Shown one piece after another: positions 16,159 through 55,879 of a stretch of 64,000 bases of DNA. The notes under the pieces were generated by a model. The model saw only the letters and a program-made list of their open reading frames with translations. It had not been told where the DNA came from and did no database searches. Positions within the stretch are counted from its first letter, which is position 1; each line of letters begins with the position of its first letter. The DNA is taken from positions 24,603,296 to 24,667,295 of the forward strand of contig JAJEKV010000002.1 in assembly GCA_021234155.1 (NCBI GenBank), in the 5' to 3' direction. Origin of the DNA: Isoetes taiwanensis. Taxonomy: Eukaryota > Streptophyta > Lycopodiopsida > Isoetales > Isoetaceae. Both the position numbers and the translations under genes were made by a program.

Positions 16159-16853
16159 CCTTTTCATGTAACTTTATGTAAGGGCGATACGATTGAAAAC
16201 TTGAAATATCAATTGTTTAGGTAAAGATTAGGAGATTTTCAGAAAGTTTCTCCACACTTGACATGGACATTTCTCCAACAAACGTATAGAAACTTCCTAG
16301 ACTATTTGGATAGAAGACCTAGAATGTTGGGAAATGTGGCTGTTAGCAAGCCACTGACTCCATATTTGTTTTTTGTTAATTATACCCTTGTCTGCTCCAA
16401 TTCATGTTGTTGAATGCTCGTCCTTAGCGTAAGTCCTTGTAAACTCTATTTTTATAGCTATGACTTCCTGTGGATGTTAACACAACATCCGTCCATCCAT
16501 TATACAAAGAACATGGACCATTTAGGAGAATTGTGGGGTAAAATAAGTTTTCTAGATTCAAAAACGGAACTGCTTTGGTTGAGCATGGAAGGCAATTGTG
16601 CGAAAGACTTTTTCATGTATGTTTATGTAAGGGCAGTAGGATTGAAAACTTGAAATATCAAATGTTTAGGGTTGAAAACTTGAAATATCAAACATGAGAT
16701 TCTTTTAAAAGTTTCTCGACACTTTGACATGGACATTTCTCCAACAAAAGCAGCAGAAACTTCCTAGACTAGTTGGGGAGAAGACCTAGGACGTTGGGAA
16801 ATGTGGCTATTAGCAAGAGACTGACTCCAGATTTGTCGTATGTTAATTATACC
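16159..16853. repeat. Tandem repeat upstream of LHT gene (period about 450 bp)
   Basis: The segment 16159-16386 is repeated at 16609-16853. Shared words include TTATGTAAGGGC, GATTGAAAACTTGAAATATC, GACATGGACATTTCTCCAAC, AGAAACTTCCTAGACTA and GTTGGGAAATGTGGCT. The right unit also has an internal doubling of GTTGAAAACTTGAAATATCA. A third version starts the duplicated block at 49313. The repeats lie 0.4-1.1 kb upstream of the transporter coding start. Confidence 0.85.
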
Positions 16854-16858
16854 GTTAA

Positions 16859-16898
16859 AGAAGAAGAAGAAGAGATTTTAACTTCACGCCACAAGGCC
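16859..16898 (-). mobile_element. SINE 3'-end fragment
   Basis: On the minus strand the fragment reads GGCCTTGTGGCGTGAAGTTA then AAATCTCTTCTTC. It matches the 3' end of the SINE-like sequence at 56480-56530 (TTTGTGGCGTGGACGTTAAA then ATCTCTTC). It is absent from the equivalent place in copy 2 (near 49545), so it was either inserted in copy 1 or deleted in copy 2. Confidence 0.55.
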
Positions 16899-17271
16899 AA
16901 AATTGGAAGAGCTGAACCACACGATGCATTGTCCGAGAGCAACTTCAATGCATGCTGAATGCTGAGTCAAAATGAAGTCAATGTAAACTCCGTGTGGATA
17001 CTCAGCCTTTGGGAATTATAAAATGCCATGAGAATTATGGTTGCAGCAGAGCAAACAAATCTGTGTATGCAATGACCACAGCAACGATTTCACCACTTCC
17101 ATTTCCGACGGAAGAAGGAACTGATTTTTCGGACGCCCCATTCGTTCAGAACGAGGTCGTCCTCTTGCTTTTCACAAATAAGAAGCACATGCATAATCCT
17201 TCTCTTCGACTCTATAACAAGCCTTTTCTCTGCATTACAGAGACGCACATTTGCAATCTGCAAGGGCTTCC

Positions 17272-19495
17272 ATGCACTTAAATGTTTCGTGGACTCACAG
17301 ATGGTGGTATTCCACAGTCCACAACGTGACTGCCATGATCGGAGCCGGAGTTTTATCCCTGCCAGCAGCTATGGTGTTTCTGACTTGGTACTTAACTTAA
17401 ACTAAAACCCATCTCTTTTTTCATGTCAGAAAATGCTTTTCAGCTCATACTACTAAAATTGCATTGCCCAGGTCCCCTGGTATTCTGATATTGATGCTTT
17501 TGTGGCTCATAAGCTTGATAACATTGTGGCAAATGATCCAAATGCATGAAGACAACCAAGGGCGCCGTTTTGATCGATACCATGAACTGGGGCAGCACCT
17601 TCTTGGCAAAAGATTGGGACTTTGGATTATTGCCCCTTTGCAGCTCCTGGTAGAAATTGGAGCAGATACAGTGTACGCTTTAACAGCTGCAAACTCCATG
17701 AAAAAGATTAGCGCCATGCTTCATACCTCCTCTTATCTAAAGGTGAAACACTGGGTTTTGGTGTTTGGGTTTATTCAACTATTCCTTAGCCAATTCCAGC
17801 AGCTTACATCCATCACTTGGATTTCTATTATAGCCACATTCACTGCCATTGGGTAATTTTCTCTCCTCCCAATTTCCCCTTTTTGCTTTTCAGGTGTTTT
17901 GTCTTGTCTTTTATGTTGGTGAGTGTCTTTCATGTGTTGTCTTTATGGACATGTTAATGCTCTTGAGAAGGACATCCCACCAGTATTAAAATTTTTATTT
18001 TTATTTTTTGCTTTCTATTTATAGATAGATAGATAGAGTTTTTAATGTCTTTCGGAATTCAAAACTCATGGACGCGCACTCAAATCCTTTTCACTGTACA
18101 TAGGGTATTGCTCAATACAAAGAGCATAATGCAATCACAACTGTGAGTGCTGATCGCCCCCACAATTGTACATGGCTAAAATGGGTCCTTCCCCACTAAC
18201 TTTATAATGATCATGACCACTTCCCCCACTAACTTTATAAATGACTACGCATCACTTTCTCGTAATCGTAAAGACAAGCTAGGATGATCATTATAAGTGC
18301 AGCAAACACACACACGTCAGATATAGGCGTTTGCACTCACCCATTTCTCCCTCCAAAATATAGAATGAAAGGGGTAGTTTTATGATATCACAGTCAAGAT
18401 AGAGCTCATTATTTCCACTTTCGAAAAGATGAATGTTGTAGGATCCATATTCTTGTTGTATTTGTGTGTGCCTCTAATAGATCACTTAGATTCTGTACAT
18501 TTTGACATATTTTTTATTTTTGTCATTTTGCATCATATTTTGATAAATGGCACAGGTACTCTACCATAGCTTGGTGGGCAACACTATACAGAGGGAAATC
18601 TAGATCTCAACAAGTGAGTTATGATTTTCCACATGTCTCTATGGCCAACTCTATCTTTGGCATCTTTGATGCAATGGGACAAATGGCATTTGCCACTGTA
18701 GGGCACAATGTGGTTATGGAGATTCAATCCACCATCCCATCTACCTCGGAGATGCCTTCAAAAATAGCAATGTGGCGTGGTACCCTATTATCGTATATAA
18801 TAATTGCACTATGCTATTTTCCTTGTGCATCTATTGGCTATTGGGTTTATGGAAATCAACAAAATGAGAAAGACCTAAATTGGGTTTTTGGGTCACATGA
18901 AAATGGGAATATGATGCTTGTTCTTAAAGACCCGTCCTTTCTTGTTGTTATAGCCAATGTCATGGTGGTCCTTCATATGTTTGGTGGATATCAGGTGCCC
19001 ATTTTGTCATTTCTTTTCTTTATTATTTATGAGCGACTCTGATATGTTTCTATCATCATCAACAGATCTATGCAATGCCGTTATTTGATCAAATAGAAAC
19101 CTTCTTGAATTGCAAATTTGAGATTGAATTTAACTTTAAAACTCGTTTGGTCGTCCGATCTCTCTATGTAGGTAAGTGATCTGGTTATACATTGTGTAGT
19201 TTAAGTGCAAATGCTAACTTTTTCTTCTCTTTAGGTTTTACATGTTTTCTTGCGGTGACCTTTCCTTTCTTTGGAGATTTGCAAAGCTTTTTTGGAGGTT
19301 TTGCAACTGTTCTCACTACATTTGTGGTAGGCAATATAATTCCCTCTTCTTATAATTATATTTTAATATCTTATTCTATATTGTCTTGGGTTATAGATTC
19401 CAGGAATATTGTGGCATATCCATCGCAAACCAACACCTTTTGGCCTATCATGGCTTGCAAATATGGTTTATTTCTTACCTATAGACTTACAGTAG
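17272..19495 (+). CDS. Amino acid transporter, lysine/histidine transporter (LHT) type
   Basis: Six exons (17272-17387, 17472-17852, 18556-18994, 19066-19171, 19235-19323, 19397-19495) join in phase to 409 codons. Family blocks appear in order: [130 protein letters not shown] and [15 protein letters not shown] proteins (AAAP superfamily) import neutral and basic amino acids with protons across the plasma membrane through 10-11 helices. The N-terminal leader (about 40 residues before WWY in LHT1) is not clearly present. An upstream acidic segment near 17070-17154 could be a first exon, but phases do not fit simply. The C-terminus lacks the last helix and ends at a TAG shortly after LSWLANM. 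It may be a truncated protein, or an early-decaying gene. Confidence 0.78.
18000..18110 (-). mobile_element. SINE-like tail in LHT intron 2
   Basis: ATAGATAGATAGATAGAGTT followed by TTTAATGTC and CATGGACGC is the reverse complement of the SINE 3' end seen at 12446-12487 (CATGGACGC, TAAAAA, then ATCT repeats). No box A or box B is visible, so only the 3' part is supported. The equivalent lies in copy 2 near 51575, with a second copy near 51915. Confidence 0.45.
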
Positions 19496-21528
19496 AATAT
19501 ATATGAGCATGAAGGGGCATTCAAATAGTTTTAGTTGTATAAACAAGGAGAATGACCCAAAAATGGTTTTTTTTCCCAAAGGGGCTTTTGTCAGCCCCTT
19601 ACATGCACATGGCACACCCCCATGGGATGTGTAACCTTCGAGGTATGAAGTTGTAGAAATGGAGTTTCATATTCCAATGACCTCATTGCGAATGAATCCC
19701 ATCCAGCATAAATGGGGGTGTGTTGGATGGGTGTGTGTGCTATGTGTGCTCGCGCGCGCTCATGTGCTTTGTGCTGGGAGAGGGGGAGAGAGAGACTTCT
19801 ATAATGCCATTAAAGATAAAGCAAGTAGAATCTACCAGATTTCCGCACTTCTACCGCCAATTACATAGCATTCAAAGTTAAGTGTACACAATGATCTAGC
19901 TAGTGAAACTAGATGGCCATTATAGCGATGAAGCCTCTTTATAAGGACTGTGACAAGGTCAAAATCTAGGATCCCCTAATGGCACCTTATCAAATGCTTC
20001 TCATTCGATAAAGAATGCAAACCATAATTGTGGGTGATATAATAAGTATATAATTGTCTCAAACAGCTTTTACAAAGTTCAATATGATAGTATGAATTTC
20101 TTCATCTTAGAATTCATTAATGTTTGCATTTCTACAGTAACTATAAACATCTTAATGTAATATTATTATTGTGTATGTGATATTTTGATATGAGATGAAG
20201 GCATTAATAAAGTTATGCCATAGGTCTCCATTGTGATTGGGATCATCTTAACTACCACATCTGGAGTTGGCGCAATGAGGAACATTTTTGTGAAGGCATC
20301 AACGTATAAATTTTATAGTTGACATTCTTTAGATTATAATACAAAATCAAGTAGAGGAATAAATTCGCTATTATTTTGTTGCTGGTGCTAAAGCATCTCA
20401 TAAAGTCATCATATGTTCTGGGTTTAGACACATGATGTGGATCAAACAATAGAATTTGCAATAATTACATTTTGCAGTTGTTAATGATATATTATTTCTA
20501 GGCCGATGGGCTATTACTTGCATTTCAAAATATAGGGAAACAAAACAAAATAAAAAGTATTAGAAACAAAGGGACGAAGAGGAGGATTGTGTTGTCAGTT
20601 TTCCATTTTTTATTAGTATCAATTCTTTAAAGATCTACATCAATCTTAGGCGTTGCAATTACTTTGGGCTTCCTTTTGCTATATTGTTAAGGGGCAATCA
20701 CATAATCAGGGATGCACTCTGCTGGACCAAGGATAGGTTCAATACTTGAAAGGTATAATATTCAAAAGTATGCTAAGTTGCTAAGTTCTATAACTAGTCA
20801 TTTGAGGTGTAATACTTCAAAAGGACTTGTGAAAAAAATCCAGCAATCGAAAAAATTTTGCTTAAGATAGATAAATAGAGTTTTAACGTCCACGAAGACC
20901 AAATTGGCCATAGGACACAAAGTCATAAATTGTGTAAGGAATTTCTTTTTTCTGTACGTAGTTACTTCAGTTTTGCGTAAAAGAAAATCTTCGTGTATGC
21001 AATTTATGGACTTTTCTTATGCATTTTTTTCGATATGCAATTCCTTTAGGTTGTGCACATAATCTGGGCTTGCATATGCAAAATAGAACACTTTTTCTGA
21101 GAGTTAGAAGAAAATATACATATTGAACTTTATACGTCTGATTGCTAGCGTTTGTACATACAGAACTTATCTTTGATTTAGATTATGGTCCTCGGATCCG
21201 TTGATCCTATCGCCCAGTACAATATAGTTATACTTTAGTCTAATATGGTTTCATATGATTTAGAGGATATATATTAAGGGGTGTCTAATTGTGTAAGTGC
21301 GCGTACTAACATTACTTTTTTTTGTCGTGCTTTTATAAGTACTTTTTTTCCTAATAAGATAAGGTGTTAACACACTATGGGTTGCGCTTACAACTATTTC
21401 TAGATATAAACTAATGATATATGGAAGATGCTTAAGCTAAGGAAGGCGGCTAAAAACAAGGTCTATCTAGAATAATGCACAAATACGTCATATATCTGAA
21501 AATGTGAGGTACTTAGGTTGTTAAATTG

Positions 21529-23060
21529 AGCATATCTAACTGGAAGAGAAAACTACAAATGGTTTGACATTCTCTTAATAGCATTCAAACACCCTATTTG
21601 CAGTCACCAATTACCAGATTACCCATGATACTACATTTGGGGGTACTCAATAAATTCTCAACTACATGCAACATTCCTAGAAACGATGGTCACCATTGAA
21701 AATAATACCTCAGAATCGAGCTCTCCCATTTATAGCATTCCATAATCTTTGATTACTAGCAGCACTTCATGCATCGCCTATTACTCTCGTGATTAGAAAC
21801 TTTTCTGGCCGTAGCTGCCACAGCTTTATTTAGTAAATGATTCGTAATTTATAACAAAGGTAGAACAAGATTAGAGAGGGAACTAATCAAGGTTTGCTAA
21901 GCACTACAACGCATGGGGAAGATGCAGTGGATTTGCATAATAGAATTACAGGCCAGCTCAAAAGAAAAGGATAAGAATCTTATTCTAGGCATATGAAAGT
22001 GTAAGTTATTTTTTGTCGTTTTAAGGACATCTAATGTTGCTCTCTAGAAACATATATGGAAAACAAATAATGTACTGAGTGAAGACTAGATGTACAAAGA
22101 TATTGTACTTTAGATACACACAAAATACTTTTTTTTTTCAAAGTTAATGCTGGTGGAACTTGCAGGCACCAACTTGTCCCAGTCGATGGTAGCCGATACA
22201 CAAAATTTTCTGAGGATGCCATATGTAATAGTGTCTTCCTCTTGAAACATTTGATTGCATAAGACACGGTTTCAGAAGAGGGGGTTGATATGGATTGAAG
22301 GAAAAATCAGTCCAACACGCGGAGGATGCCATGGGTTTCAATTGATAGGAAGCTAGAACCCCTCTATGGGTACTTTGAGATAGGCAATCAAATTCTCTTT
22401 AAGCTTGAAAGAAAGGGTTAGATTCTAATTTACTATTGTATCATGGGAATGGAGTATACCCCAACTCCATGAATGGTCGAACCATCTGTCTCGGAGGCTA
22501 TACTCAATGTGAAGCTCCCATATTGTAGACTCCAAAGCTGCAATCAAAATGGGCATCAAGTAAATTAGCTTGAAGGTGGGCTATGTCTATGGAATACATT
22601 TGGGAAACTGGTAGTGGACAGATACGCATAATGGGCAGTTAGATGGCACCCTACACCAACTCACATGAGTGGACGTGAAGGAAGGCATTTGATCAGTTGG
22701 CTAACGCGCCTCCACTTTTCAATCTGGATCGTCCAAACAACACATCGAGCATCAAATGGCATGTACCACCAACGCACTAGCCAAGAATTTTCCCTTCCGG
22801 CAACCCAAAAATGGAAAACTACAAAATACCCTTAACAAAAACTAATTACATAAGTGTATAAAACAAATTGATTGAATAATACTTTTGATTATCACTTTTT
22901 TTGACATTAACATTAGGAGACTCTCCCTTCTCTGTCGTTATTTCACAACCCGTCCTTTAGATATTGTAATGTATGTTTGCCAAAATGTTTTCAGCAATGT
23001 ATCAAAAACTTCTGAAATCAAATTGCAAAGGCTTCAATGTCAATATGCCAATATAATGCC
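21529..23060. other. Intergenic, nothing recognised
   Basis: Short open frames without recognisable motifs and no clear repeats. The boundary of the 16.6-21.5 kb duplicated block lies at its left edge. Confidence 0.35.
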
Positions 23061-23519: not shown

Positions 23520-25890
23520 CTTCTAACGCATTTTATGCCTAGATCTCCTCGAATGAGCTGCCTCCCCGTAATATCCGCAGGATGTAAGATATGCACTTCA
23601 TTACATGCACACATATATTATATTTGCCATCTTTTTTAGGAGTACTAATTCCTTGGCCTCGGCCTACGACCAAGGCCTCGACCTTCCTTGGAGATATGTA
23701 TGCCCATGCACACACATCCATCAAGACAGACAAATGTGTTGTTGCCAGGCTGTTAGCATTACAAAATGAACTTCACATGGCCACTATAATATTGTTGGAA
23801 TATGCTCTGCTCTCGCATTGCTATTTCCTGTTGTTTCTACTTTTAGATATAAGCTATTTCTCATCATGCATAGTGGGTACCGATTTCTGCATTTAGAAAG
23901 ATCTAGAAAGATTGTTAATGTATTTCTTCATGTCAAAAAATGTTATACCTCCAATTATCATTATGCAAGTCTCATTTTCCGAAGCAAACTCAGTCTCTTA
24001 TGTACTTTGCCATGTCATGTCCTTTGGAAGGATAATTCATCATCAAAATATCTTACTACTATTCTAGCTATGTCATTGCTTAAATAGCGACATCTTATAC
24101 AAGTTTACGCGAGAACTAAATTGCACATCTATTGCAAATGAGATGTAATCACTTTCATGTTGTTTGTAGCATACAAACAATATGCAATTCACCTAAAATT
24201 CAGATGCTTACAACGTAGAGCCATCATTGATATGTTTTAAGTGCAAAATCTCCAAATCTTGATATCAAAAAGCAATCTCCTAACCATCATCCATATTTTA
24301 AGCTAAACATATATACACCCTGATAAACTCCACACTATCAACGTTGAGTTATATGTGAAATCTTAGCCATAAGCAAACACATCTTTTGCTACAACCAACA
24401 AACAAATTAAACCCTTGCCTACTAAATTTCTTTCTTTCGATAAATTTACACCCTTGCCTACTAGCATGTAGCTAAAGCTCGACATTATGTGTACATCTTC
24501 GCTAGCTCAAACAAATACGAATAATGGCAACATTACAGTGCAAACAAACTTGCAACATGTTCTTAGAACAAGAGATTCTTAATTCTCATGAACAATGGAT
24601 ATTATACATGCTAAACACTTGAAATTCTTCTACAACCAAAATGTATTTCCTCTAAAGGCATAGGACATTATTGCAAAAATCACAACATCCAAACAAAACA
24701 CTATTCTCAAGAGCATAAATGCTACTCATGTTCCACAAGGCCCCCAAAACTGAATCAGTATGATTTTGTTCTAATGATTTCTTAGTGAAAACCAACTCTT
24801 AAAATCAATACCGGTATGTGGGCCAAAAAGTTTACAAAACCATGTCTAGTTATAGAATGTAGTTCATCAATGCAATTTAATAATGCGACAAACAAATATT
24901 GTTTCTTCAAATGGTATTGAAAGATGATAATTTATAGCTAGTTTTTATGACAACTTAGATATATGGTATGTATTACTACTTAATATATAAAGTTTATCAG
25001 AATGGTATTTGATCACATCTATTAGCCTTGGTTTATTGATATTATAATTTTACATGCATAATAGGTATGATATTTTACAATGATTAATCATCTTTGTAAT
25101 TTTATGTGCATAGTTATTATGATATTTTATAGTGATTAATTATCAATCAAAATATATGGTTTAGATTTACTAATATGTTTTTTCAATACCAATGCGATTA
25201 AAGAATGTTGTAAATATATCTAATTTTGAATGTGAAAAGCTAGTATGTTTTTTGTTTCATGATATCAATACGATTATAGAAGGTTGTAGGTATTCGTGAT
25301 TTTATCTAACGGTGCTTCATGTAGCAAGTTTGATGATCGATAAAAGACCATAATATTCCACCTTAATGTATTAGCTCAGTAAGTTTGAGGGCTCAAACAT
25401 GATTTTTTCCACGTGGTTCCAAATTGTGATATCAATTGGCATATGGTTCATCTGAACATTTTTTTTTTAATCAATATTTTCTTATTGTTAATATTTTTAT
25501 TTATGAGTTACAAAAGCAAAAGCAAAGATTACATAAGATAAAAAGATGCCCAAATTTTTTTTCCATTGAATTTTGTTATCATAGTACAACAATATTAGGC
25601 TTGCAAAAGGTAGACTTGAGTTATCAATTTTTTCTGGAATTACATTAGGTTCAGATTTATTTCCAACAACAATACCCTCTTGATTGGAGTCAAAGCATAT
25701 ATTTATTCTCCTTCATTGGCTCTGTCACATGGTAGCTACAACGAGCACCTGAAATATAAGAGAAGAATAGGTTACCAATTGGACAATTACTTCCTTCAAT
25801 CTCGTATACAGATATGTATTCCTCTGTGTTCGTTAATAGTAAGAAAAACAAATGCTAAGTAGAAACTTAATAGTTGTCCAAAGAAACTGG
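23520..25890. other. AT-rich intergenic, nothing recognised
   Basis: Long AT-rich stretch with only short open frames of biased composition. A locally repeated phrase, TGATATTTTA(C/T)A(A/G)TGATTAAT, occurs near 25069 and 25119. No RNA gene or transposon domain is seen. Confidence 0.4.
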
Positions 25891-25939
25891 CTGGATGCAG
25901 TGGGCTCACATCACGAGGTTGAACCAATTTTAAAAATTA

Positions 25940-26032
25940 ATCTAGTATTGAAGCTACCTTTCTAGTTGTTGCATGTTCAAGCTCACGAAGTTTCCTCACC
26001 AACAATGGCAATCTCTGCAAACCGTGTTTCTA
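25940..26032 (-). other. Isolated exon-like segment, unrecognised
   Basis: On the minus strand, after a good acceptor (GTTTGCTTAG), the frame reads KHGLQRLPLLVRKLRELEHA then TTRK before a GTAGCT donor. It has a heptad-like, charged, helix-forming composition. It lies 0.6 kb downstream of the phosphorylase exons on the same strand, but I cannot match it to that enzyme. It may be another gene's exon remnant or chance. Confidence 0.2.
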
Positions 26033-26652
26033 AGCAAACAAAACGTAATAAAAACATGAGCCCTCTTCCAGTTGCGCTACCATTTAAAAGTTAGAATCTT
26101 ATTTTAACTATAAATACGCTCGGAGCATAAATTTGGACATAGTACCGATCTATTCCTAAGAAACTGTTTTTTCCTACGAATAGATAGGATGCCTAGATTG
26201 AAGGCATGCATATACGCATGCCTATCATTAATGGGGTGCATTCTTGGACTTTATTTAATGAACACCACTAATTCTTCTTAACATGTGCACCAAACTTAAT
26301 ATACCTCTGAGGCTACATAATGTGTGGCAAGCTTAAGGCAAGCATATGTGCTCCATCAAGTCGCTCCTTAGTAAGCCCTATGTATTCCCTATATGCATGA
26401 ACAATGAAATCTTATGAAATCCAACATGCAAGCAACTTTGTGCAATTAGTTGAGTATTACCCATGTGACCCGGCAGATGAGACAAGAAATAGGATGCACC
26501 AACATCAGCGTGGAGCCCTTCCGTTTAAGATGTTCGAGGAAGTAGTAATGCATCCAATAGATAACCTGACCAATTTTAACAACCACAAATTAGAGATTAG
26601 GTTCAATCTCTAACTAATTTTATGAAAGAAACCAGAGATGCAAAGGAAGAAC

Positions 26653-27083
26653 CTTCATATGTCCTGGAAGCACATTTTCCAACAACTCTATAGGATACTT
26701 TTCCAGATTTTCTCTTATCACAGCGTGAATCGTGAAAGAAATACACCTTAGTTGTGATATCCCAAGGCTTCTTCCAATCCAAACTTTCCTCATTAACAAG
26801 TATTCACATTAACTCTATAACTCCAATTGTTGGGTGTGTGTCATTTAGATGAAATGCCACCTGTAAATAATGCCATATACAAACAACTCAAAAGTAATAG
26901 CATGAGAAGAATTAAAATATCATGCCATGATGAGCTGGCTGAAGTGAAATTCATATTCCTATTCTTAGTGGCACTGCAACATTAAATCTTAATATGGGCA
27001 AACCTTGTCTGCAAAGCAATCTAAAGTGGAATAACGCTCCTTAAATCTTCGAATAACATCTTGTAAAGATGTTGAAAACCACT
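26653..27083 (-). pseudogene. Alpha-glucan (starch) phosphorylase fragment
   Basis: Two consecutive exons are visible on the minus strand. Exon 27083-27004 ends STSLQDVIRRFKERYSTLDC FADK and has a GT donor. Exon 26860-26653 begins VAFHLNDTHPTIGVIELM and continues ILVNEESLDWKK, DITTKV, TIHAVIRENLEKYPIELLEN and VLPGHMK. This is the Q-L-N-D-T-H-P core of glycogen/starch phosphorylases, which release glucose-1-phosphate from alpha-1,4-glucans. Only about 95 of 800-1000 residues are present, far from the PLP site. An in-frame TGA at 26806-26804 replaces the conserved Arg of E-L-M-R (a CGA to TGA change), and one extra base near 26738 shifts the frame. No other phosphorylase exons were found nearby. 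It is a dispersed fragment, not a working gene. Confidence 0.82.
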
Positions 27084-27099
27084 AAATCATTATTTTAAA

Positions 27100-31990: not shown

Positions 31991-32007
31991 CTGATTTTGT
32001 AAAAAGA

Positions 32008-32245
32008 AATGTAACCTCTAGCCCACTCAAGCAATTTTCCATGAAGTTTCATGTGCATCAAAAATTGCATAAAAAATGCTGCTAAGCATCAAGGCTTAAC
32101 AAATTTGATCTCAAAGATTGGGCTTCATGCAAGAAGAAAAGTTTTGATTTGTAAACGTAAAATGTAACCTCTAGCCCGTACTCATGCAAATTTCCATCAA
32201 GGATCAATGCGGCATCAAAAATTGCACAAAAAATGTTACATTGCT
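32008..32245. repeat. Direct duplication, offset about 152 bp
   Basis: AAATGTAACCTCTAGCCC at about 32008 recurs at about 32160. Both copies continue with CTCA(A/T)GCAA, TTTCCATGAAG or TTTCCATCAAG, GCATCAAAAATTGCA and AAAAAATG. The second copy also ends in an AATGTTAC word. Confidence 0.85.
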
Positions 32246-32249
32246 TAAT

Positions 32250-43390: not shown

Positions 43391-43627
43391 TCCCCAACCT
43401 AACATGCATACTACTGAGTAACAACCCCCGTGTCCTTGAACTAGTAACACCATCGAAAGTATAAAGCACCTCAAGCACCTAAAGCACTTGTCCCATCTGC
43501 TTTTTGGGTAGTACTATCATATTTACACCCCACAATTTCATAGATATGAAGATTCTAAAAGAATATTCTACCTCCTCTCTCCCCAACCCCACCCCCCGTG
43601 CACCTGCCTATTACTTGCTCCTCGCTA

Positions 43628-44640
43628 TATGCCTCAACAAGCTAGATATCGTAGATCCAAGCATGCTATAAGGTACGGAACGATAGTTAGATTGTGTGAT
43701 TGCATCTAGAAGGCTAGAATTACCCTAGGACACATGTTTGCGAGTAGAAGATCCATCAAAAGCCCAGATTGTTGACTACATGCTATACTTAGATTGTAAG
43801 TGCACTAGGCAAGGCTGGCGAGTCGAGTTTGGCTCTGTCGGTCATAATAGTTGGTCCTTAGAGTAAATTTAATGCTATGGACCCATGGGCGAACTCAAAC
43901 CACACTCCGAGCTCGCTAGACAGGCAAACTGGAGGAACACTTCATTTCCCCCTCGTGCCCATACATCAAAAAAGAGAAAATTTGGATTTGGCACATCCGT
44001 ATGGTCGACGGCCAATTTTTCTTTTCGGAGATGTTCCTTGCGAGATGAGCTACATTTGAACGGTGGGATTAGCAGATTGAGTGGTTTTGATGCACAAATA
44101 CTTAAACCCTACGAAATATGTAGGGTTTAGGTTTTGGCATCCCTCCCTAGCCTAGAGCTTGCTTACAGGGTTTCTTCTCGGGTTTGAGGAGGAGAAGAAC
44201 AAAAAAGCCCCCAATGCACGGGCGTTCCATACTTGTCCCACAGATGGCTCATAACAAGCTAGACATCATGTGACTTGGCATGTTAGAAGGTACTGAAGGA
44301 CAGTTCGACTGCATGATTGCATCTAAAAGACTAGAGTTACCCTAGGACACATGTTTGCGGAGTAGAGGATCCATTAAAAGCCTAGATTGCCGACTACATG
44401 CTATCTTTAGATTATAAGTGCACTAGGCAACGAGAGTGTGTTGAGCGAAAGGTCGGCTAGTTGCCCATAGTGAGTCGAGTTTGGATCCGTTGGTCATATT
44501 AGTTGGTCCTTAGAGCAAATTTGATGTTAAGAGACTCACGCGGGAACTCAAAACCACATAGTGGCTTAACTGGGGAATGACTTTACTTTTGCGTCCCTTT
44601 ACGGGCCATAAAGGGGAAATTTGAGGCTTCCTGGCAATAA
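43628..44640. repeat. Tandem duplication, period about 615 bp
   Basis: The segment from about 43630 to 44000 recurs from about 44245 to 44640. Shared words include ACAAGCTAGA, TTACCCTAGGACACATGTTT, ACTACATGCTAT, TAAGTGCACTAGGCAA, GAGTCGAGTTTGG and AGTTGGTCCTTAGAG. The right copy has an extra 35 bp or so after GCACTAGGCAA. The two could be a pair of short LTR-like ends or a simple duplication; no internal coding region is evident between them. Confidence 0.85.
44103..44129. repeat. 10-bp inverted repeat of the telobox word
   Basis: TAAACCCTAC (44103-44112), a 7-nt spacer GAAATAT and GTAGGGTTTA (44120-44129) form a perfect hairpin. AAACCCTA is the plant telobox motif found in promoters of translation and cell-cycle genes and in interstitial telomeric repeats. 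Whether this copy has a role is unknown. Confidence 0.8.
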
Positions 44641-44679
44641 TCCGCGGAGAAATGTCATACAAGCGAGAAATGTCATATA

Positions 44680-47650
44680 GGTGAAGCATGTTGTTCTAAG
44701 TTGTTACCTAGGTGAAGTTAATTATTTAAACATTCATCACGGACGACTGCACTGCGGGTACCAAAGCCACCTCGCGCTTCATCCCACAAACTCGAACGCC
44801 ACTAGGTGTCACTTCGCGGAGCCGGTGAAGCCATGGCTCCGTACATATACCCACCCATCGCGGTAACCTAGGAACTCCCTCAACATGCCCATTCCGAGGC
44901 ATGATTCATCGCCGTGGGCTGGAATTCACGCCAAGAAATTCCAGCCTCAATGCATGCAAAGAGGAGATGGGCAGCAAACCGGTGATTGTGGAGGAACAAG
45001 AAATTCGCGGCACAACCCTCGCCCGCTTGGGGACTCAATTGAACCCTCGCTTTGCCGGCTGGTAGACCAATGGTATCCACTCAGAGCTTCGACTTCAGAT
45101 CGATGCTACAACGCCCGCGCCAGCAGCATCGGACAAACGCTAGCAAGTTTGTACTAAAGCAAAGAAGAAGCCTCCTGTAATTCAGCTGATCGGAGCTACA
45201 AATGACGAGGGAAGCCAATAAAAGAGGCCAATGGAAGGAGGAGGAGGATCTTGTAACGTTCTAGATGAGGTGAGGAACATGGTATTTCAATTAGAGAGAA
45301 GCTTCTAGACGCATCTGATATCCTTAATCATCCATCAGAGATCGGGTTAGCGGCCGACTTCCACAAGACGCAGAGACATCCACAGATCCTAACACCGCCC
45401 CAAGAAAAGGAACTTGTGATTGGGCCATGTGATATGCACGTGGCTGGGCATGACCTCGGCTTCTAAAGGAACGCGGCCGCAGAACTGGCCAAGGAGAGCA
45501 ATCCAAAGATTCGGCTACGCCTGTGGAAAATGGTGGAAACTCTTCAAACAAAGGCCATCCCGAGATCTCCCTTAGGAGTGCGTAAAACTCTAGATGTCTC
45601 ACGCGGCCCGCTATGAATCAAAACTTGGATAGGTTCCTACTCGCTTGAAAGAAATATATGATGAGTATAACTTCCCCTTCAAGGTTCCGAAAATGCATAT
45701 GAGACCGATCCAAGCTCGGAAAGTAAAGGGCCTATAGATAATTGCAAGGAAAGGTGAGAATAGGTTAGTGAGCTGGTCATGAATACTAGGGAATGGGTTA
45801 CAATCTTAGTGTGTGTAAATGCGTATGTTTAAAATACCCAAGATGTACATTTTCAAGGGAATCCAGGATGAGGCGCGTGACAACATGGCCAGTGTGAGGA
45901 GGGGCAATTCAGCCGCCTTAGCGTCACCTTGATGACACAATTCGAACTCTTTAATAGTCTTGGTTGTCCCACTCAATGTAGAGTGCCTCGAGGAGTATCA
46001 CCTAAACGACTACATCTGATCTTTGCTTTGATGGGCATGGAAGCCATGTAGAACTGGATAAAGTCATATACCGGCAAACAAAGATATGGGAATACATTTT
46101 GCACTATTACCCGCATTACACATCACATAGGTCGCAACCACTAGATGTCTCGTGCTTCTAAGGGCAGCCTTTCAAAAAAAATTGGAGGGGGTCAATACAT
46201 GGTAAGAAAAGGCAGGTCTGAACCTAAGAGGGAAGATATAGCTGAATTGATATCTATGTCCGGTCAGAGGGGTTAACAATTTCAATATAAAGGCCGGTTT
46301 CATGGCTACAGATATGGTCGCTCAATCCAACAAGGGTAGTGCCTTGAAAGGAAGGCACAGTCTTGTCGGAGAGGAAGTTTATGCCAAAGACCACTACTTG
46401 ACCAACCAGCAGAATTGAAGATGGATTGTTATCCCCATCAGGCAACCTCCGCAGCAAAATGAGAGTGCACAAATGGATGAAGTTAATAGAGTGAACCATC
46501 GGGACATCCATGTGGACAAGGGTTGAACATGGAGGGTTTCAACATGCAAGAAGTTGACTTGGTAATGGAAGGAACATGTGCAAGCTTACATGTGACCATG
46601 CGTAAATAGTTGGGAACAATGCCAGTCCTACCCATAGGGCAAAGAAAGTGTGTCCATCTCCATGCTGTGCTAATCATCCCAGCAAAGTTGCACCAAGTCG
46701 CGGGCACCCAAGATGCAAATAAGGAGGAGGAGGGAGATTGCACCTAATCTTCAAGGCGGAAGAGTGCACATTACCAACAATGACTCGCCAAGCACTTGCG
46801 CCAGAAGGCAAGAAGAGAGAAATGAGATCAAGATCCAAAGAAGCTACCCTAAGAGTGGAGGCGCCTGTGAGGAGGACCTAAAAGGAAGAAACCAAGAGGC
46901 TGGCTGTCGCAAAATCAAAGCAGAGAGGGAAAGTAGGAAGCAAGCAGAGGCTTTGTATGAGGAGAGCACCAAGGTCGAGGGCATTTATATATATCCAAAG
47001 CAGCTAATCCAGTGAAAGCCATCTTTGGCTGCCAAAGACCATTGAATGAGGCTACAAAGGCCGTGGGTTGGCCATGAAGAGGGATGAGACAAAGGCAAGG
47101 CGTAAGGTGGCAAGGCGCCATTGGAGAGGATGACAATTGGGAGACTTGTGCCGAGGAGCTAGAATGAAGAGGTGGGGTTATGCAAGTACCTCAAACACAA
47201 ACCCCGGATAGGTTGTAGTCTTGAAGACACAATTCTTATGTGAGGTGGGAAATGGGATGCATCCTCAATCAATTAGTATAGAGGGCTGCATCTCTGGTCG
47301 CCTACACCTAACAAAGCCTACAACATCCGCTCACCTTTGAAGAGATGACCTTGCCATCAAACAAAGAACATTCAATCCTTTAGCTAACTCTTTGAGGATG
47401 GATACACAAGGCTGATAAACTATGCAAAGAACAAACACGTACATGAAATGATGAAATCGTGGCAAATTTGACAAGGCCGTATTATTATTCTGGGAGATGG
47501 CTGAGATTGGAGTTGATGCCAAAGCTCTTGCTACAGCAAGGGGCATGGACGAGGGCTTCTTTAGAGCATGGAGGTCTGCACAAGTACGCAACAGGAACTT
47601 TGCTGTAATGTTGTGCTCACTCTCCTTAACATACTTTTGGTATTGCAGGT
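44680..47650 (+). other. Possible decayed retroelement, plus strand
   Basis: Between stops and frame changes, the plus strand reads as hydrophilic, charged protein: IPKMYIFKGIQDEARDNMAS (about 45838), KREDIAELISMS (about 46233), KKREMRSRSKEATLRVEAP (about 46810) and MAEIGVDAKALATARGMDEG (about 47495). The first resembles the start of a gag-like domain, but no zinc knuckle, protease or polymerase motif is seen, so the assignment is weak. The last segment is followed by a donor-like GTACGC and, 65 bp on, by an acceptor-like TATTGCAG, and may be an exon of an unrelated gene. Confidence 0.22.
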
Positions 47651-49312
47651 AAATGAGGCAACACTAAAACTGCCTTAATTGAACACAAACACAGCAGAAA
47701 TGGTATGTAGCTTGTAGCTGTCTTTGGCATGTGGATCTGATATTTATGGGTTGACATTTAGAGTCCATTGATGCAGGATGCATATGATTCGGACGAGACC
47801 ATAGAAGAGTAGTAATGTGTGCTACCAAACATTGTGCAAAAGGAGGATGACTTCACTTGTCTTTTTAATGTCAAGCAAGCATATGGACATAAGTATCATT
47901 TTTTGTTGAATATAAAATGCCAAGTTAAATACATGAACACGCTGTCTTTGGGATGTCTTCAAGGAAATTACATTTCATAGGCACAAATTATATAACTCCA
48001 CAAAATTGCCTCATGAAGTTGGCATTACAAAATACAACAAAAAACCCTTCAAACAGATCAGAGGGCTATCAAATTAGATATACATATGTGTTTTGCTAGG
48101 ATTAGGCAGATCGTGAGGGCTATAGATTAGATATGTAAGCCGCCCATTTTGGCCGTGGCAAAGAATCGAATTATTCGATTAACCGCTCGAACTTAACCTT
48201 TATCCCCAAAGAATAAATACACTCAAGAAGGGGACTATGTCGCGGTTAATCTTGGCGGTTTCGCATCTATAGGGTGACTTCACCTAAGTTTGAACTCATC
48301 GCATCATATAAATTTCTGTGAGCGTGACTACAAGAACGTTTTTCAGAGTGAAGGAACCGAGGTCTTCAGAGGCGCCAGAGTCTTGACGCCCTTCTTCTTC
48401 ACCGGGAGTGGAGGCGTTTCCGAGTATGGGCCGGAGCCTCGGGTCTTCCTCCAACCGCCCATGGCACCGCAGAATCTAACAAGAAATCAACAATAAAACC
48501 AAATGAAGCCAAAGCCGATCAAGGGCTTATCGCAGATGATCCGGAAAGTAAACGGATATGGACGACGCTTTAGATAAGTCAGGGATATGACTCGAGCTTA
48601 GCAACCCTTTGAATCGATCCGGATTTTGATCGAATGGCATTTCTCCCCTTTAAAAGCCCCATGCCGAATGAGGCTCCCTCGGCCTAATTGTGCGCAGGTG
48701 CCGCCCACCCAAACGCGGTTCCAATCTCTGTTAGCATAAACCGAGGCCTGGGATTAGGGGTAAGTAATTGCGTTGATTTTGTTCATGATGGTGGCGCATA
48801 TGGGCTAATAGGGGCCAACCGTAGCTGGCCGATGGCTTCCGTGACGCTGGTCTGGACCATAGCCATGATGGCCATTTCGTCCCGCGACACAAGAAGTGTG
48901 TGAGGTCCATGCCGATCACGGGGCGATGAAGGGGCTTAATTGAGGGGGTCACGATGTATGGGGCAGGGACTGATGGTGTGACGAATCCTGGGACTCCTAC
49001 TTGACGTTGACCATAGTGACAAAGTGCCTTAGCTTAGGTTGGTGTGGGGGCTCGAAGCGTGGGTTCACATGGCGGTAGACAGTATTACATGTCGCTGGGG
49101 CTTCTAACCCCCAATCTTCGGCGTCTATAGCTTCGCCGACACGATTTTTCAAGGCGCTTTTTTCCATTGCATTAGTACCATTAGGTATCCGTAGACACTT
49201 TGTTGTCCGAAGTAAATTGAATTCTTAACAATTTGCCACATTCACGCTCTTGGCGCCGGTGACATGGACAATCGTGACCTATTGCTGGGGATGGGACAAT
49301 GGATATGAATAT
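47650..49312. other. Intergenic, nothing recognised
   Basis: Short frames only. The 48.3-49.1 kb part is GC-richer than its surroundings but contains no motif. It ends at the sharp left edge of the duplicated transporter block. Confidence 0.35.
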
Positions 49313-50430
49313 TGTTCATGTATGTTTATGTAAGGGCAGTAGGATTGAAAACTTGAAATATCAAATGTTTAGGGTTGAAAACTTGAAATATCAAACATGA
49401 GATTCTTTTAAAGTTTCTCGACACTTAGCGGGGACATTTCTCCAACAAAGGTAGTAGAAACTTCTTAGACTAGATGGGGAGAGACTAGTGGCTATTAGCA
49501 AGAGACTGACTCCACATTTGTCTTATGTTAATTATACCGTTAAGGCCAACTTCAATTCATGCTGAGTCAAAATGCTGAGTTAAGGCTGAGTCAAAATGAA
49601 GTCAATGTAAACCCGTGTGGATACGCAGCCTTTGGGAATTATAAAATGCCATGAGAATTATGATTGCAAAGATAGCAATCAAACTGCGGTAATGCCATGG
49701 CCACGCGAACTTAATTTCACCCTTCCATTTCCGAGGAAGAAGGAACTCGACTTCTGACGCTTCCCCATTCGCTCGTATGAGGTCATGCTCTTGCTTTTCA
49801 CAAATAAGCACATGTTTAATCCTTCTTCACTCTATAATACTTTTCTCTCGTGATACGTAGGCGATATTGATGACCGCGGCTTCCATGCATTAAATGTTTC
49901 CGCGGGATCACGATGGTGGTATTCACAGCCTGATAACGCGGATCGCCATGATCGGAGCCTGAAGTTTATCCTCGCCAAAGAGCTATGGTGTTTCAATTTG
50001 CAACTTAAACTAAAACCCATCTCTTTTTTCATGCCAGAAAATGCTTTTCAGCTCATACTACTAGAATTGCATTACCCAGGTCGTCTGGTATTCTCATACT
50101 GATGCTTTTGTGGCTCATAAGCTTGATAACATTGTGGCAAATGATCCAAATGCATGAAGACAATCAAGGGCTACCAGCTTAACGATACCATGAAGTGGGC
50201 AGCACCTTTCAAAAGATTGGGGCTTTGATTATTGCCCCTTTGCAAAATTCCCCGTAGAAATTGAGTAGATACACCGCACGCTTTTAACAAACCGCAAACC
50301 TATGAAAAGATTAGCTCATGCTTTTAACACTGGGTTTTGGTGTTTGGGTTTATTCAACTATTCCTTAGCCAATTCCAGCAGCTAACATCCATCACATGGA
50401 TTTCTATCATAGCTACATTCACTGCCATTC

Positions 50431-51398
50431 GCATCGATCCGAGACATCGAATCACCATTCTAGAATGGGACGCAGCATGCATGCTCATGCAGCATGGCGA
50501 TGCCCGCTTTGGTTGGGGTTCGCTATTTCAGCGCTAAGCCAAGATCCACGCCTCATCTACGCTTTCCTCTTCCGAGCAGCATCTTATTCTCTTTGAATTG
50601 TTTCCGCGTGGAGGGGCTTCTTCCCTCGCTCGGTTTAGCCACTGGCATATCTTTCTTGCTATCCTTAATCGCCTTTGGCCTCGGCCTCGCGGATCTTCGC
50701 CCTGATCCTGGGCTTGTAAGGAAGTTCTCTCGCAGTTCCGGCAAATATGTTTTGTCCCATTCTAGAATCGACGTATCCGGTGAGAGACACTCTGATCACC
50801 ATTCTAGAATGGACGAAAGCATGCATAGTCATGCATGCATGGCGGGCGCATGCCCGCTTTTTGGTTGGGGTTCTATTTCAGCGCCATTTCTCGCGATCCA
50901 CGCTTCACCTTTCCTCTTCTCTCGCTAGCATCTAACTTTGAACCCACCTCCCCTTCTTGTTTATTATATTTTGTTGCCCTCATGATTATGTTTTTCCCCA
51001 CCACTGGTGATGTTTTGTTCCAATTCACCGGTGATGCCATTCTCTATGTTTCTCGCTTGTTGTGTTGGTGATGCGTGCACAGTTGGCTGCGATCCGCTTC
51101 ACTTCTCCATGCTGGGTTTTGGGAGCCGCATTCTATGCTCCACGCTTGTTTATCTCTATCGGGCTTATCACTAGGGTTTTTAACCTTTGATGTTTTCTAA
51201 GCAGGTACATCAACCACTCATCTATTAGCATCAGGATTTGTTTTGGGGTCCAAAATGATATAATTGATTTTCCCTTTATTCTTTTCTCGTGGGTAGTCTT
51301 AGGTGCTGCTTACCCACGCCCACCATCAGAGAAAACTGGACAGATGAATGAGAAGCCTATGGGCGGTTTGTTGGTTTCTTGCGAGTCCCATTCTAGAA
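50431..51398. mobile_element. 968-bp insertion at LHT exon-2 splice donor (copy 2)
   Basis: Copy 1 reads GCCATT GGGTAATTTT at the exon-intron junction. Copy 2 reads GCCATT, then 968 bp, then GGGTAATTTT. The insert is GC-richer than the gene and contains four copies of the 14-bp perfect palindrome CCATTCTAGAATGG: 50455-50468, 50757-50770 (one mismatch), 50799-50812 and 51388-51401. The last overlaps the right junction. It also holds an internal direct repeat and a frame reading LLPSLGLATGISFLLSLIAF (about 50614), which resembles a membrane segment. No transposase is present. It could be a non-autonomous element or captured sequence; no clear target-site duplication beyond CCATT was found. Confidence 0.6.
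50452..50935. repeat. Direct repeat (about 140 bp) inside the insertion
   Basis: 50452-50595 and 50796-50935 match. Both start CACCATTCTAGAATGG, then GCATGCAT, GCATGCCCGCTTT or GATGCCCGCTTT, GGTTGGGGTTC, CTATTTCAGCGC, GATCCACGC and TTTCCTCTTC. Each begins with the CCATTCTAGAATGG palindrome, so the palindrome marks the start of the repeated unit. Confidence 0.85.
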
Positions 51399-54300
51399 TG
51401 GGTAATTTTCTCTCCTCGTAATTTGCTCTTTTTCACCTTTTTTCAGGTGTTTTGTTTGTCTTTTATGTGTTTTTGTCTTGCCGAGTGTCTTTTCATGTGT
51501 TGTCTTTATGGACATGTTAATGCTCTTGAGAAGGACATCCCAATCTTAGATTTTTTATTTATTTTTTTGCTTTTTATAGATAGATAGACAGAGTTTTTAA
51601 TGTCTTCCGCATCCAAACTCATGGACGCCAAGACTGATGTGGACTTGCCTGCCCATCGCATATTTTAATTAAAATGGGTCCTCCCCCACTAACTTTATAA
51701 TGATCATGACCACTTTCAGAACAAGATGTTGAACCCATGATCCTAGGCATGGCAAAGCAAACACACACCACGTCGTATTATAAGACTTACACTCACCCAT
51801 TTCTCCATCCAAAATATAGAATGAAAGAGGTGGGAAGCTCTCGCTTTATCACAGATGCAACTTATTGAGGAGGATATCCCCAAATCGATTTTAGTGTTGT
51901 TTTATTTTTGCCTTTATATAGATAAAATGAGTTTTTAATGTTCATAAGAATCTGCAACCATGACACGACTCGGAGCGGGGACTTGCCCCATCATCAGACA
52001 TAAAATGGGTCCTCCCCCACTAACTTTATAATGATCATGACCATTTCCCCTTGTAGGATCAATATTCTTGTCATATTTGTGTGTGCCTCCAATAGGACTA
52101 CCAGACTTGTTTTTTTTTTTTTTTTTATCCGTATATACATTTTGACTTATTTTTTAATTTTGTCATTTTGCATCATATTTTAAATGGCACAGGTACTCTA
52201 CTATAGCTTGGTGGGCAACACTATACAGAGGGAAATCTAGATTCTCACAAGGAAGCAAGATTTCACATGTCTCTATGGCTAACTTATCTTTGGCATCTTT
52301 TGATGTAATGGGACAAGCCTGCATTTGCCATCAGGGTACAATGGTTATGGAGATTCAATCCACTACATCCCATTCTGGCCCCTGGAGATGCTCTTCAAAT
52401 TAGCAATGTGGGTATGGTACCCTATTATCGTATATGGCTTTAAATGCACTATGTGCTATTTTCCTTGTGTGCATCTATTAAGGCTGGTTTATGGAAAATC
52501 AAAATGTCGAGAAAGACCTAAATTGGGTTTTTGGGTCAGCGCTGTTTGAAATATGATGCTTGGTTCTTGAAGACCCGTCCTTTTCTATTGTTATAGCCAA
52601 TGTCATGGTGGTCCTTCGTATGTTATGGATATCAGGTGCCCATTTTGTCATTTCTTTTCTTTATTATTTATGAGCGACTTTGATATGCTCAACAACAATA
52701 TCTATGCAATGCCATTATTTGATCAAATAGAAAACCTTCTTGAATTGCAAATTTTAGATTGAATTTGAACTTTAAAACTCGTTTGGTCGTCCTGATCTTC
52801 TATGTAGGTGCGATCTGGTTATACATCAGGTAGTTTCTAAGTGCAAATGCTAACTTTTTCTTCCCTTTAGGTTTTACATAAGTTTCTTGTGGTAATCTTC
52901 TGCTTTGGGAGATTTGAGCTTTTTTCAAGTGTGTTTCGTACTGTTCTACCATTTGTGGTAGGTAATATAATTCTTCTTATAATTATATTTTAATATCTTC
53001 TGACTTATATTAACTTGGGTTATAGATCGCAGCTGTGCATATCCATCAAGAAATCCAAATTTTGCCCGGTCATGGTTTATTTCTTACCCAGAGAGACTTA
53101 CAAGACAATATATATGAGTATGAAGGGGGATCTGGGCCAGTTTTAGTTGTACAAACAAGGAGAATGACCCAAAAATGGTTTTTTTTTTGGTTTTGTCAGC
53201 CCTCTACATGTGCACATGGCACACCTCCATGATGTGTAACCCTGAGGTGGTGGAAGTTGTAGAAATGGAGTTTCATATTCCGGTACGACCTTCTATTAAA
53301 ATGAGTCCCACTGCTGCAAATGGGGGTGTGTTAGATGGGTTTGTGTGTTACGTGTGCTCAAGGCGCCATGTGATGTGGTAGCCGGGGAGGGGAGAGAGAG
53401 AGTTCTATAATGCTGCCACGGTGAACTGCCGATTTCCGCACTTCTACTCCCAATTACATAAAGTGTTCAAAGCGGCGCGAAATAGCCAGCGAAGTAACTT
53501 AGATGGCCATTATAGCGATGGCTCTTTATAAGGACTGCGACAAGGCCGTAAAGATCCCGCGACGTGGCACCTTTTATCAAATGCTTCTCATTCATAAAGA
53601 ATGCAAACCTTAATTGTTGGCATATTATAGCATTTAATTGTCTCAAATGCCTTTTACAGTTCACATGATAGTATGATTTTCTTCATCTTAGAATTCATTA
53701 ATGCTTCGTATTTCCCTATAGTACTGGCGTTCATTCCACGCAATATTATTATTGTATGATATTTGATATGAGATATGGATTAATAAAACTTTTCGCTATA
53801 GGTCCTACCAGGGGACGGGGATCATCTTGACTACCACATCTGGTCATGCGAATGAGGAATACTTTTGCAACAACGTATAAATTTTATAGTTGACATTCTT
53901 CAGATTATAATACAAAATCAAGTAAAGGAATAAATTCGCTATTATTCGTAGCTGGTGCTAAAGCATCTCATAAAGTCATCATATGTCAGTGGGTTTAGAC
54001 ACATGATGTGGATCAAAAAATAGAATTTGCAATAATTACATTTTGCAGTTGTTAAAAATATATTATTTCTAGGTCGATGGGCTATTACTTGCATTTCAAG
54101 ATATACGGAAACAAAAACAAAATAAAAAGTATTGTAAGTCGTAATAATAGGAGGATCAGGTTGTCAGTTTTCCATTCTTATGCTTTTTAGTACAATTTTT
54201 ACATTCATATCAATTCAGCGCGGTAAATTCGCCTTTTGGGCTTCCTTTTGCTATATTGTTAAGGGGCAATCACATAATTCTGCGTACCAACGGCGGTATA

Positions 54301-55026
54301 GGTTCAATACTTTCGGTGCCGTATAATATCTAAAAGTATGCTAAGTTGGCGAGTTCTATAAAAGCCGGTTTGAGGGCTACTTCAAAAGGACTTGAAAATT
54401 CAACGATCAAAAATTCGCTTTAAAATAGATAGAGAGTTATCCACGAAGACCAAATGCCGCGATCAAACAGCAAAAAAGGGTATGTGCCCAAAGTATGCAA
54501 AAATTTAAATGCGCGTCACTATGAGTACTATATTCAGATACACAAGCTCAAAGACTATATACTTAAAAACGCATATATGCGTATCGTAATGTTTAGCAAG
54601 TGAAGAGGAAACAAATTATTTTTTCTGCATAGCCATTTGTAAAAAGTTCTAAATGCATTAAAGTCAGTAAATTGTGGAAGGAATTTTTTCCTTGCGGTGT
54701 ACATTTCTAGCCATGAAAAGAAAATTATGTATGCAAAATTTTATAATTTTCCTTATATTTTTTAATATGTACCTCAGTTTGTGTGCATTATTAAGTTGCT
54801 CGTATTACTGCAAAAATAGGTTCACTTTTCCTGTGAGTTAGAAGAAAATATCCTTATACGAAACTTTATACGCTGACGTTTTTTAGCGCTTGTTATTAGC
54901 TGTGAATCTGCTCTTTGCTTGGACTATGGTCCTTATCCATGACTCAAGTACTTAGTAATAATATAGTTATACTTAGTCTTATTTATATATGTTATGTCTA
55001 ATTCGCAATCGCGGCTCACACATACG

Positions 55027-55027
<1 letters not shown>

Positions 55028-55057
<30 letters not shown>
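55028..55057. repeat. Homopolymer run of 30 T
   Basis: The equivalent place in copy 1 (near 21317) has only a short T-run before GTCGTGCTTTT. The long run may be real slippage or a consensus artefact. Confidence 0.9.
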
Positions 55058-55058
<1 letters not shown>

Positions 55059-55879
55059 TCGTGTTTTAATAAATTATTTTTTCCCCATATGTGTTAACAT
55101 TAATCGTGGGTTGTGCTTATAAACTATTTCTAGATAAAACCAATATATGCTGAAGATGCTTGCTTAAAAGTGACGCGGCTAAACAAGGTCTATCCAGAAT
55201 AATGCACAAATATCATATCCGAAAATGTGAGGTAGTCAGTTATAAATTGATACATTCCACCCCCTAACTCTAACCTAAAATAAAGTTATTAAACTCACAA
55301 TGCCTGAATCGGTCAGATCTGGCGTAATGTACAACATAAAGATTCCATTCAGATCAAGCAAAATAATCCTCCGGCGTACCGCCCTCTCGCTTTCCCTCCG
55401 CTTAGATAGTATAGTGATCATAATCTTCCATTAATGTATGCACGCGGTAAATATCCTGGCTGCATGTATATCACCGCGCATAGCATACGGCTTCCGCGGT
55501 GTATGCAGAGTTCCGCGAGTGGTGACTGTGGGTGAGTGGTGACCACCCCAGCGACCATTAAAGAAATGTGCCACCTGCGCGTAAAACTCCACAACTTAAA
55601 CATACGTAATATGGCTCTGGGACATGTCCCCAAATGACATTTATATGTATGTTTAGAAAGAAAATTACCCTCCTCAAATCCAAACGACTCAGTACAAAAA
55701 CAAATTGGTCCAAAATGATGTGCTGACGAACAGAGTCTTCAGAATCCATGCCAAACTTGAGTTGATATCTTGAGTTCCTGCAACCTGGCTTGATCTACAC
55801 CATTGCCGCCACGCGTCAAACACAACTTTGATGTAGGATAGATCGATATTATGGAACGCCCATCCGCTTTCATGAAAAC

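What the first reader, a model, noticed from the sequence alone, without database searches (positions are those of the whole stretch)
16609..55245. A 4.9-kb transporter block is present twice, 33 kb apart, one copy open and one wrecked
16609-21528 and 49313-55245 are collinear through promoter, six exons, introns and 2 kb of flank, in direct orientation. The copy breaks are sharp. Copy 1 keeps a spliceable LHT frame and copy 2 has frameshifts in every exon. Direct copies this far apart could be an unequal-crossover or transposition product, or an assembly artefact joining an uncollapsed haplotig.
Basis: seen in the sequence. Interest (0 to 1): 0.6.

Follow-up and report, generated by a model that had tools for sequence, protein, structure and literature searches.

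The report
Small tandem cluster of transporter pseudogenes
A plant amino-acid transporter gene was copied locally, giving one nearly open copy and two broken ones (the second broken copy lies just outside the window); this is ordinary gene-family turnover, not a joined haplotig, although the odd clustered sequence differences hint that the assembly letters here may be partly unreliable.

Summary
The duplication is real and direct: window 16609-21544 and 49312-55250 align through promoter, exons and introns at about 80% raw identity. It is incomplete as described. A third direct copy lies 3.6 kb beyond the window. Copies 2 and 3 sit in an 18.3-kb head-to-tail repeat (homology starts at 47119 and again at 65409) and share a ~1-kb repeat insertion at the end of coding exon 3, plus several identical frame-shifting indels. 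So the ancestor of copies 2 and 3 was already broken when it duplicated. Different flanks, the shared insertion and nearby LHT-like copies argue strongly against the haplotig reading. The 33-kb spacing is mostly a ~20-kb nest of inserted repeats. Copy 1 has an open 433-codon transporter core with GT-AG introns, but its ancestral start is missing and a private 1-bp insertion separates exon 1 from the core frame.

Unexpected: differences among the copies come in multi-base clusters, as in some other repeats and 5S rRNA copies of this assembly but not in control pairs. Consensus noise is the likelier cause, so raw divergence overstates age and damage. Overall an ordinary birth-and-death cluster.

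The parts
16155..16389 (+). Extra partial copy (A0) of the first ~250 bp of the block, in direct orientation 449 bp upstream; makes the left break of copy 1
   Evidence: 81% to 16604-16856 and 73% to 49315-49564
16609..21544 (+). Copy 1 duplicated block (upstream region, LHT-like transporter gene, 3' flank)
   Evidence: Self-BLAST and comparison with the third copy
17128..17170 (+). Remnant of the short 5' coding exon of copy 1; paralogues C1103 and 24.77 have ATG where copy 1 has ACG
   Evidence: Six-frame reading and alignment with four paralogues; coordinates approximate
17272..17387 (+). Copy 1 exon 2 from the in-frame ATG; contains the private +1 base near 17278
   Evidence: Spliced alignment and DNA alignment
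17472..17852 (+). Copy 1 coding exon 3
   Evidence: Spliced alignment, GT-AG
18556..18994 (+). Copy 1 coding exon 4
   Evidence: Spliced alignment, GT-AG
19066..19171 (+). Copy 1 coding exon 5
   Evidence: Spliced alignment, GT-AG
19235..19326 (+). Copy 1 coding exon 6
   Evidence: Spliced alignment, GT-AG
19397..19465 (+). Copy 1 coding exon 7
   Evidence: Spliced alignment, GT-AG
20224..20322 (+). Copy 1 coding exon 8 with stop (ends TYKFYS*)
   Evidence: Spliced alignment
24734..44733 (.). Nest of high-copy repeats between copies 1 and 2: outer element 24734-27143 + 33282-35037 + 43661-44733; inner insertions ~27144-33281, ~35038-43660, and ~37665-41452 inside the latter
   Evidence: Breakpoints of matches to other genome copies that read through the inner elements. 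No target-site duplications found
47119..64000 (+). Left unit of the 18.3-kb head-to-tail duplication that carries copy 2; right unit begins at window-equivalent 65409 (C1018:24668704) and carries copy 3
   Evidence: Collinear matches with offset 18290-18597 from 47119 to 63771
49312..55250 (+). Copy 2 duplicated block (LHT-like pseudogene)
50430..51399 (+). High-copy ~1-kb repeat inserted 2 bp before the end of coding exon 3 of copy 2; the same insertion is in copy 3; absent from copy 1 and paralogues
   Evidence: Best-scored genome relatives 73-78%; ends aligned in 26 family members; shared site

Best explanation
This is a small local cluster of LHT-like (AAAP family, Pfam Aa_trans) amino-acid transporter genes undergoing birth and death. 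Shown: copy 1 and the ancestor of copies 2 and 3 are direct local duplicates over about 4.9 kb. The copy 2/3 ancestor carried a ~1-kb repeat insertion at the end of coding exon 3 and about five frame-shifting indels. It was then duplicated head to tail as part of an 18.3-kb unit, giving copies 2 and 3. Nested repeats of about 20 kb lie between copies 1 and 2. Copy 1 retains an open 433-codon core that has changed little. Inferred: the duplications arose by unequal crossing-over or break repair; the repeats entered after the first duplication and pushed the copies apart; copy 1, if expressed, would start at the ATG at 17272 and make a transporter with a shortened N-terminus; copies 2 and 3 make no transporter. 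Also inferred: much of the scrambled, clustered divergence of copies 2 and 3 is consensus noise of the assembly rather than age.
For: Direct collinear block. Third copy on the same contig. Head-to-tail 18.3-kb unit with period equal to offset. Shared insertion and indels of the same size at the same positions in copies 2 and 3: -4 at 17603, -8 at 17713, +2 at 18732, +1 at 18862, +1 at 17364. Tree (copy1,(copy2,copy3)) with support 94; terminal branches 0.009, 0.160, 0.227. Coding changes polarised with a paralogue: copy 1 3N/4S; copy 2 60N/21S and copy 3 116N/27S, i.e. no constraint. Copy 1 vs paralogues 24.77 and 24.58 omega 0.13. Copy 1 product hits PF01490 at 2.6e-70 over 10-417 of 433 aa. 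Spacer filled by nested repeats. Further LHT-like copies on C1018 at 24.58 Mb (open from exon 2 to stop) and 24.77 Mb, and on C1103, C1059, C919, C941.
Against: Raw distances do not follow the shared-insertion tree (1-2 0.204, 1-3 0.271, 2-3 0.298), and copies 2 and 3 changed 10-20 times faster than copy 1 in coding columns, which ordinary neutral decay does not explain. Clean columns do follow the tree (2.2%, 2.8%, 1.6%), but that measure selects for similarity. The junction of the first duplication is buried under later insertions, so its mechanism is not visible. No expression data.
Confidence: 0.86

Rival explanations
1. Uncollapsed haplotig or false join: the second block is the other allele placed in the same contig.
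For: None found beyond the sequence similarity itself; base-level noise in the assembly shows that the assembly may not be perfect.
Against: Homology ends at both sides with unrelated flanks; three copies on one 44.6-Mb contig; copies 2 and 3 share an insertion that copy 1 lacks; other dispersed paralogues exist.
Confidence: 0.04
2. Transposition or gene capture: a mobile element (for example a Helitron or MULE) carried the 4.9-kb gene block to a second place.
For: Sharp breaks at 16609/49312 and 21544/55250; the block keeps promoter and introns, which excludes retrotransposition by mRNA.
Against: Copies 2 and 3 plainly arose by an 18.3-kb tandem duplication; all three closest copies lie within 60 kb in the same orientation; the first 250 bp match only this locus, not a genome-wide family; comparing the block ends by eye showed no terminal motif (no dedicated test).
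Confidence: 0.08
3. Copies 2 and 3 are pseudogenes that really diverged by 20-30%, through a real mutation process that acts in multi-base clusters on silenced repeats. (This competes only with the noise part of the best explanation.)
For: Clusters sit preferentially at CG and CAG/CTG sites (0.64-0.78 changed against 0.39-0.47 overall); several indels are shared by copies 2 and 3, so some clusters were inherited; other repeats show the same pattern.
Against: Equal numbers of C>T/G>A and T>C/A>G isolated changes in copy 2; no CpG loss in copy 2 (122 CG against 82 in copy 1); otherwise perfect 5S rRNA copies in one array carry single scrambled patches; raw distances contradict the shared-insertion tree.
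Confidence: 0.25

Closest known systems
LHT (lysine/histidine transporter) subfamily of the plant AAAP family, Pfam PF01490
   Same: Full-length Aa_trans match; introns at the same places in paralogues; motifs such as [11 protein letters not shown] and GYSTIAW in the spliced product
   Different: An insertion around [14 protein letters not shown] relative to the LHT1 scaffold; copy 1 lacks the paralogue start; copies 2 and 3 are broken. Subfamily assignment rests on a scaffold recalled from memory and was not tested by a reference tree
Tandem and segmental expansions of AAAP/LHT genes in plants, e.g. Liriodendron chinense (PMC9100865) and foxtail millet (PMC10850487, abstract only)
   Same: Local and dispersed duplication of AAAP members; LHT members among the duplicates
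   Different: Those surveys count annotated genes; here the extra copies are pseudogenes with repeat insertions
Birth-and-death evolution of tandem gene families (general knowledge)
   Same: Duplication, one copy kept, others decaying, repeats inserted between
   Different: Nothing beyond the unusual clustered form of the differences

Membership tests
Pfam PF01490 Aa_trans | Whole-protein score above the curated cut-off | tested here: met
   Copy 1 core 237.6 bits against cut-off 25.6, profile 4-407 of 410
LHT subfamily of AAAP | Groups with LHTs, not AAP/ProT/GAT/AUX/ANT/ATL, in a reference tree | tested here: inconclusive
Functional gene (copy 1) | Open frame from a start codon to a stop with usable splice sites | tested here: inconclusive
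   Core open from ATG 17272 to 20322 with GT-AG introns, but the paralogue start is ACG and a +1 base breaks the join with exon 1
Pseudogene (copies 2, 3) | Disabling lesions and no coding constraint | tested here: met
   1-kb insertion at exon 3 end, shared frameshifts, N/S ratios 0.80 and 1.20; number of lesions may be inflated by assembly noise
Tandem duplication | Direct repeats whose period equals the unit length | tested here: met
   Copies 2 and 3: 47119-63771 matches 65409-82370 at offset ~18.3-18.6 kb. For copies 1 and 2 only the 4.9-kb block matches, so not met in the strict sense there
Haplotig duplication | Near-identical sequence with continuing homologous flanks and half read depth | tested here: not met
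   Flanks unrelated on both sides; read depth not testable

The most novel reading that the evidence does not exclude
The multi-base clusters are real mutations: in this genome silenced or repeated DNA is altered by a process that rewrites short patches (about 3-15 bp) around CG and CHG sites, far faster than point substitution, and it destroyed copies 2 and 3.
Probability: 0.12. Interest if true: 0.7.

Novelty: new member of a known kind. Interest (0 to 1): 0.2.

Why it matters
As a gene cluster it is a routine example of local duplication and decay. Its practical value is a warning: in this assembly some repeats carry scrambled short patches, so pseudogene calls, frameshift counts and ages taken from raw divergence need read-level checking. 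If the patches were real they would point to an unusual mutation process in plants.

Tried and rejected
Haplotig join: rejected (unrelated flanks, third copy, shared insertion). A premature stop in copy 1 exon 2 was suspected and rejected on reading the bases ([12 protein letters not shown]). The short intron inside exon 4 predicted against the memory scaffold was rejected because paralogues read through. A repeat end at 21528 as an element terminus was rejected: the apparent end was only the end of my query. Methylation-driven C>T decay as the cause of fast divergence: rejected for lack of C>T excess. Target-site duplications of the nested repeats: none found. Pfam scan of the longer spacer ORFs: nothing. 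PDB search with the main exon: nothing. Literature search for nanopore errors at methylated sites gave mostly general reviews and I rest nothing on it.

Full report
WHAT WAS CHECKED. The window is C1018:24603296-24667295 of a 1.66-Gb genome, a plant by its gene content. A self-comparison gives a direct, collinear pair: 16609-20904 with further pieces to 21529, against 49312-54455 with further pieces to 55250, at 78-89% identity, E = 0 for the main pieces. That is far beyond chance. Homology stops abruptly on both sides. To the left of copy 1 there is an extra partial copy of the first 250 bp (16155-16389), 449 bp upstream.

A THIRD COPY AND A LARGER UNIT. Searching the genome with each block finds a third direct copy at C1018:24670908-24676972, just right of the window. 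Adding the sequence to the right shows that copies 2 and 3 belong to a bigger repeat: window 47119-63771 matches window-equivalent 65409-82370 at an offset of 18.29-18.60 kb. The right unit starts exactly where the left one must end (47119 + 18290 = 65409), as in a head-to-tail tandem duplication. I did not fetch the far end of the right unit. Copy 1 has none of these flanks. Two further LHT-like copies lie on the same contig in inverted orientation (24.58 and 24.77 Mb), and others lie on C1103, C1059, C919 and C941.

ORDER OF EVENTS. Copies 2 and 3 share a ~1-kb insertion 2 bp before the end of coding exon 3. It is absent from copy 1 and from the paralogues. It is one of a high-copy repeat family whose members share the ends CGCATCGATCCGAGACATCGGATC ... 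GAGTCCCATTCTAGAAT. Copies 2 and 3 also share frame-shifting indels of equal size at equal positions (-4 at 17603, -8 at 17713, +2 at 18732, +1 at 18862, +1 at 17364). The tree puts copies 2 and 3 together with support 94. So the gene was broken first and the broken gene was duplicated afterwards.

THE 33-KB SPACING. Matches of the spacer to other places in the genome read through inner segments, which reveals nesting. The outer element is 24734-27143 + 33282-35037 + 43661-44733. The inner insertions are at ~27144-33281 and ~35038-43660, the latter holding a further one at ~37665-41452. About 20 kb of the spacer is therefore repeat insertion. The elements were not classified (no Pfam domain in the ORFs scanned; no target-site duplication).

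THE GENE MODELS. I first located exons with an LHT1-like sequence recalled from memory, then replaced it by an intact-looking paralogue read from this genome (24.58 Mb, open from exon 2 to its stop). Copy 1 has seven core coding exons with GT-AG introns and no stop. Its product from the ATG at 17272 is 433 aa and matches Aa_trans at 2.6e-70 over nearly the whole profile. Paralogues have a short further 5' coding exon. In copy 1 its start is ACG where C1103 and 24.77 have ATG, and a private extra base near 17278 puts exon 2 out of frame with it. Copy 1 against paralogues 24.77 and 24.58 has omega 0.13, and since the split from copies 2 and 3 it shows only 7 polarised coding changes (3 N, 4 S). 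Copy 2 shows 81 (60 N, 21 S) and copy 3 143 (116 N, 27 S), with no sign of constraint.

WHAT DOES NOT FIT. Raw distances (1-2 0.204, 1-3 0.271, 2-3 0.298) contradict the shared insertion, and the rate difference is extreme. Inspection shows why: the differences come in patches of several bases in otherwise identical sequence. In the three-copy comparisons, isolated substitutions are 0.3-0.6 of the number expected if the same changes were scattered at random. Most control pairs (24.58/C919, 24.58/C941a, 24.77/C1103, one spacer element pair) give 0.8-1.1, one control (C941a/b) gives 0.54, and several repeat pairs give 0.25-0.37. The patches favour CG and CAG/CTG sites without any excess of C>T. 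In one 5S rRNA array several copies examined are identical while others carry a single scrambled patch. Outside the patches, copies 1-2, 1-3 and 2-3 differ by 2.2%, 2.8% and 1.6%, which fits the shared-insertion tree, although this measure selects similar columns. Of 13 isolated coding differences of copy 2 from copy 1, 9 are silent. I think consensus noise in repetitive, perhaps methylated DNA is the likelier cause, but no reads were available and a real clustered mutation process is not excluded. Shared lesions (the insertion and the common indels) show that copies 2 and 3 are broken in any case, unless the small shared indels are systematic errors; the insertion is not open to that doubt.

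VERDICT. The haplotig reading is not supported; local duplication with decay and repeat insertion is. Interest is low for the cluster itself; the clustered differences deserve a read-level check.

Noticed in passing
Copies 1-3; L049 vs L053; 5S rRNA copies L071-L082: Sequence differences come in multi-base patches at CG/CHG-rich sites, in some repeats of this assembly but not in most control pairs; consensus noise or an unknown mutation process.
   Followed up: partly
window 50430-51399 and L043-L068: High-copy ~1.0-1.06-kb repeat family with constant ends (CGCATCGATCCGAGACATCGGATC ... GAGTCCCATTCTAGAAT), mostly inserted after ...AAT, without clear target-site duplication; class not determined.
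   Followed up: partly
window 6704-7774 (-): Pieces of a 2-oxoglutarate/Fe(II) dioxygenase gene (DIOX_N 5.6e-13; 2OG-FeII_Oxy 2.6e-20).
   Followed up: no
window 58725-60648 and window-equivalent 77250-79265: A ~1.0-kb internal direct repeat present in both 18.3-kb units, so it predates their duplication.
   Followed up: no
C1018:24774194-24775904 (-) and C1103:515681-517319 (+): Two LHT-like copies about 94-99% alike on different contigs, a recent dispersed duplication; C1103 has a frameshift and a stop.
   Followed up: partly
window 16155-16856: A 449-bp local direct duplication at the left edge of copy 1, next to the sharp left break there.
   Followed up: partly
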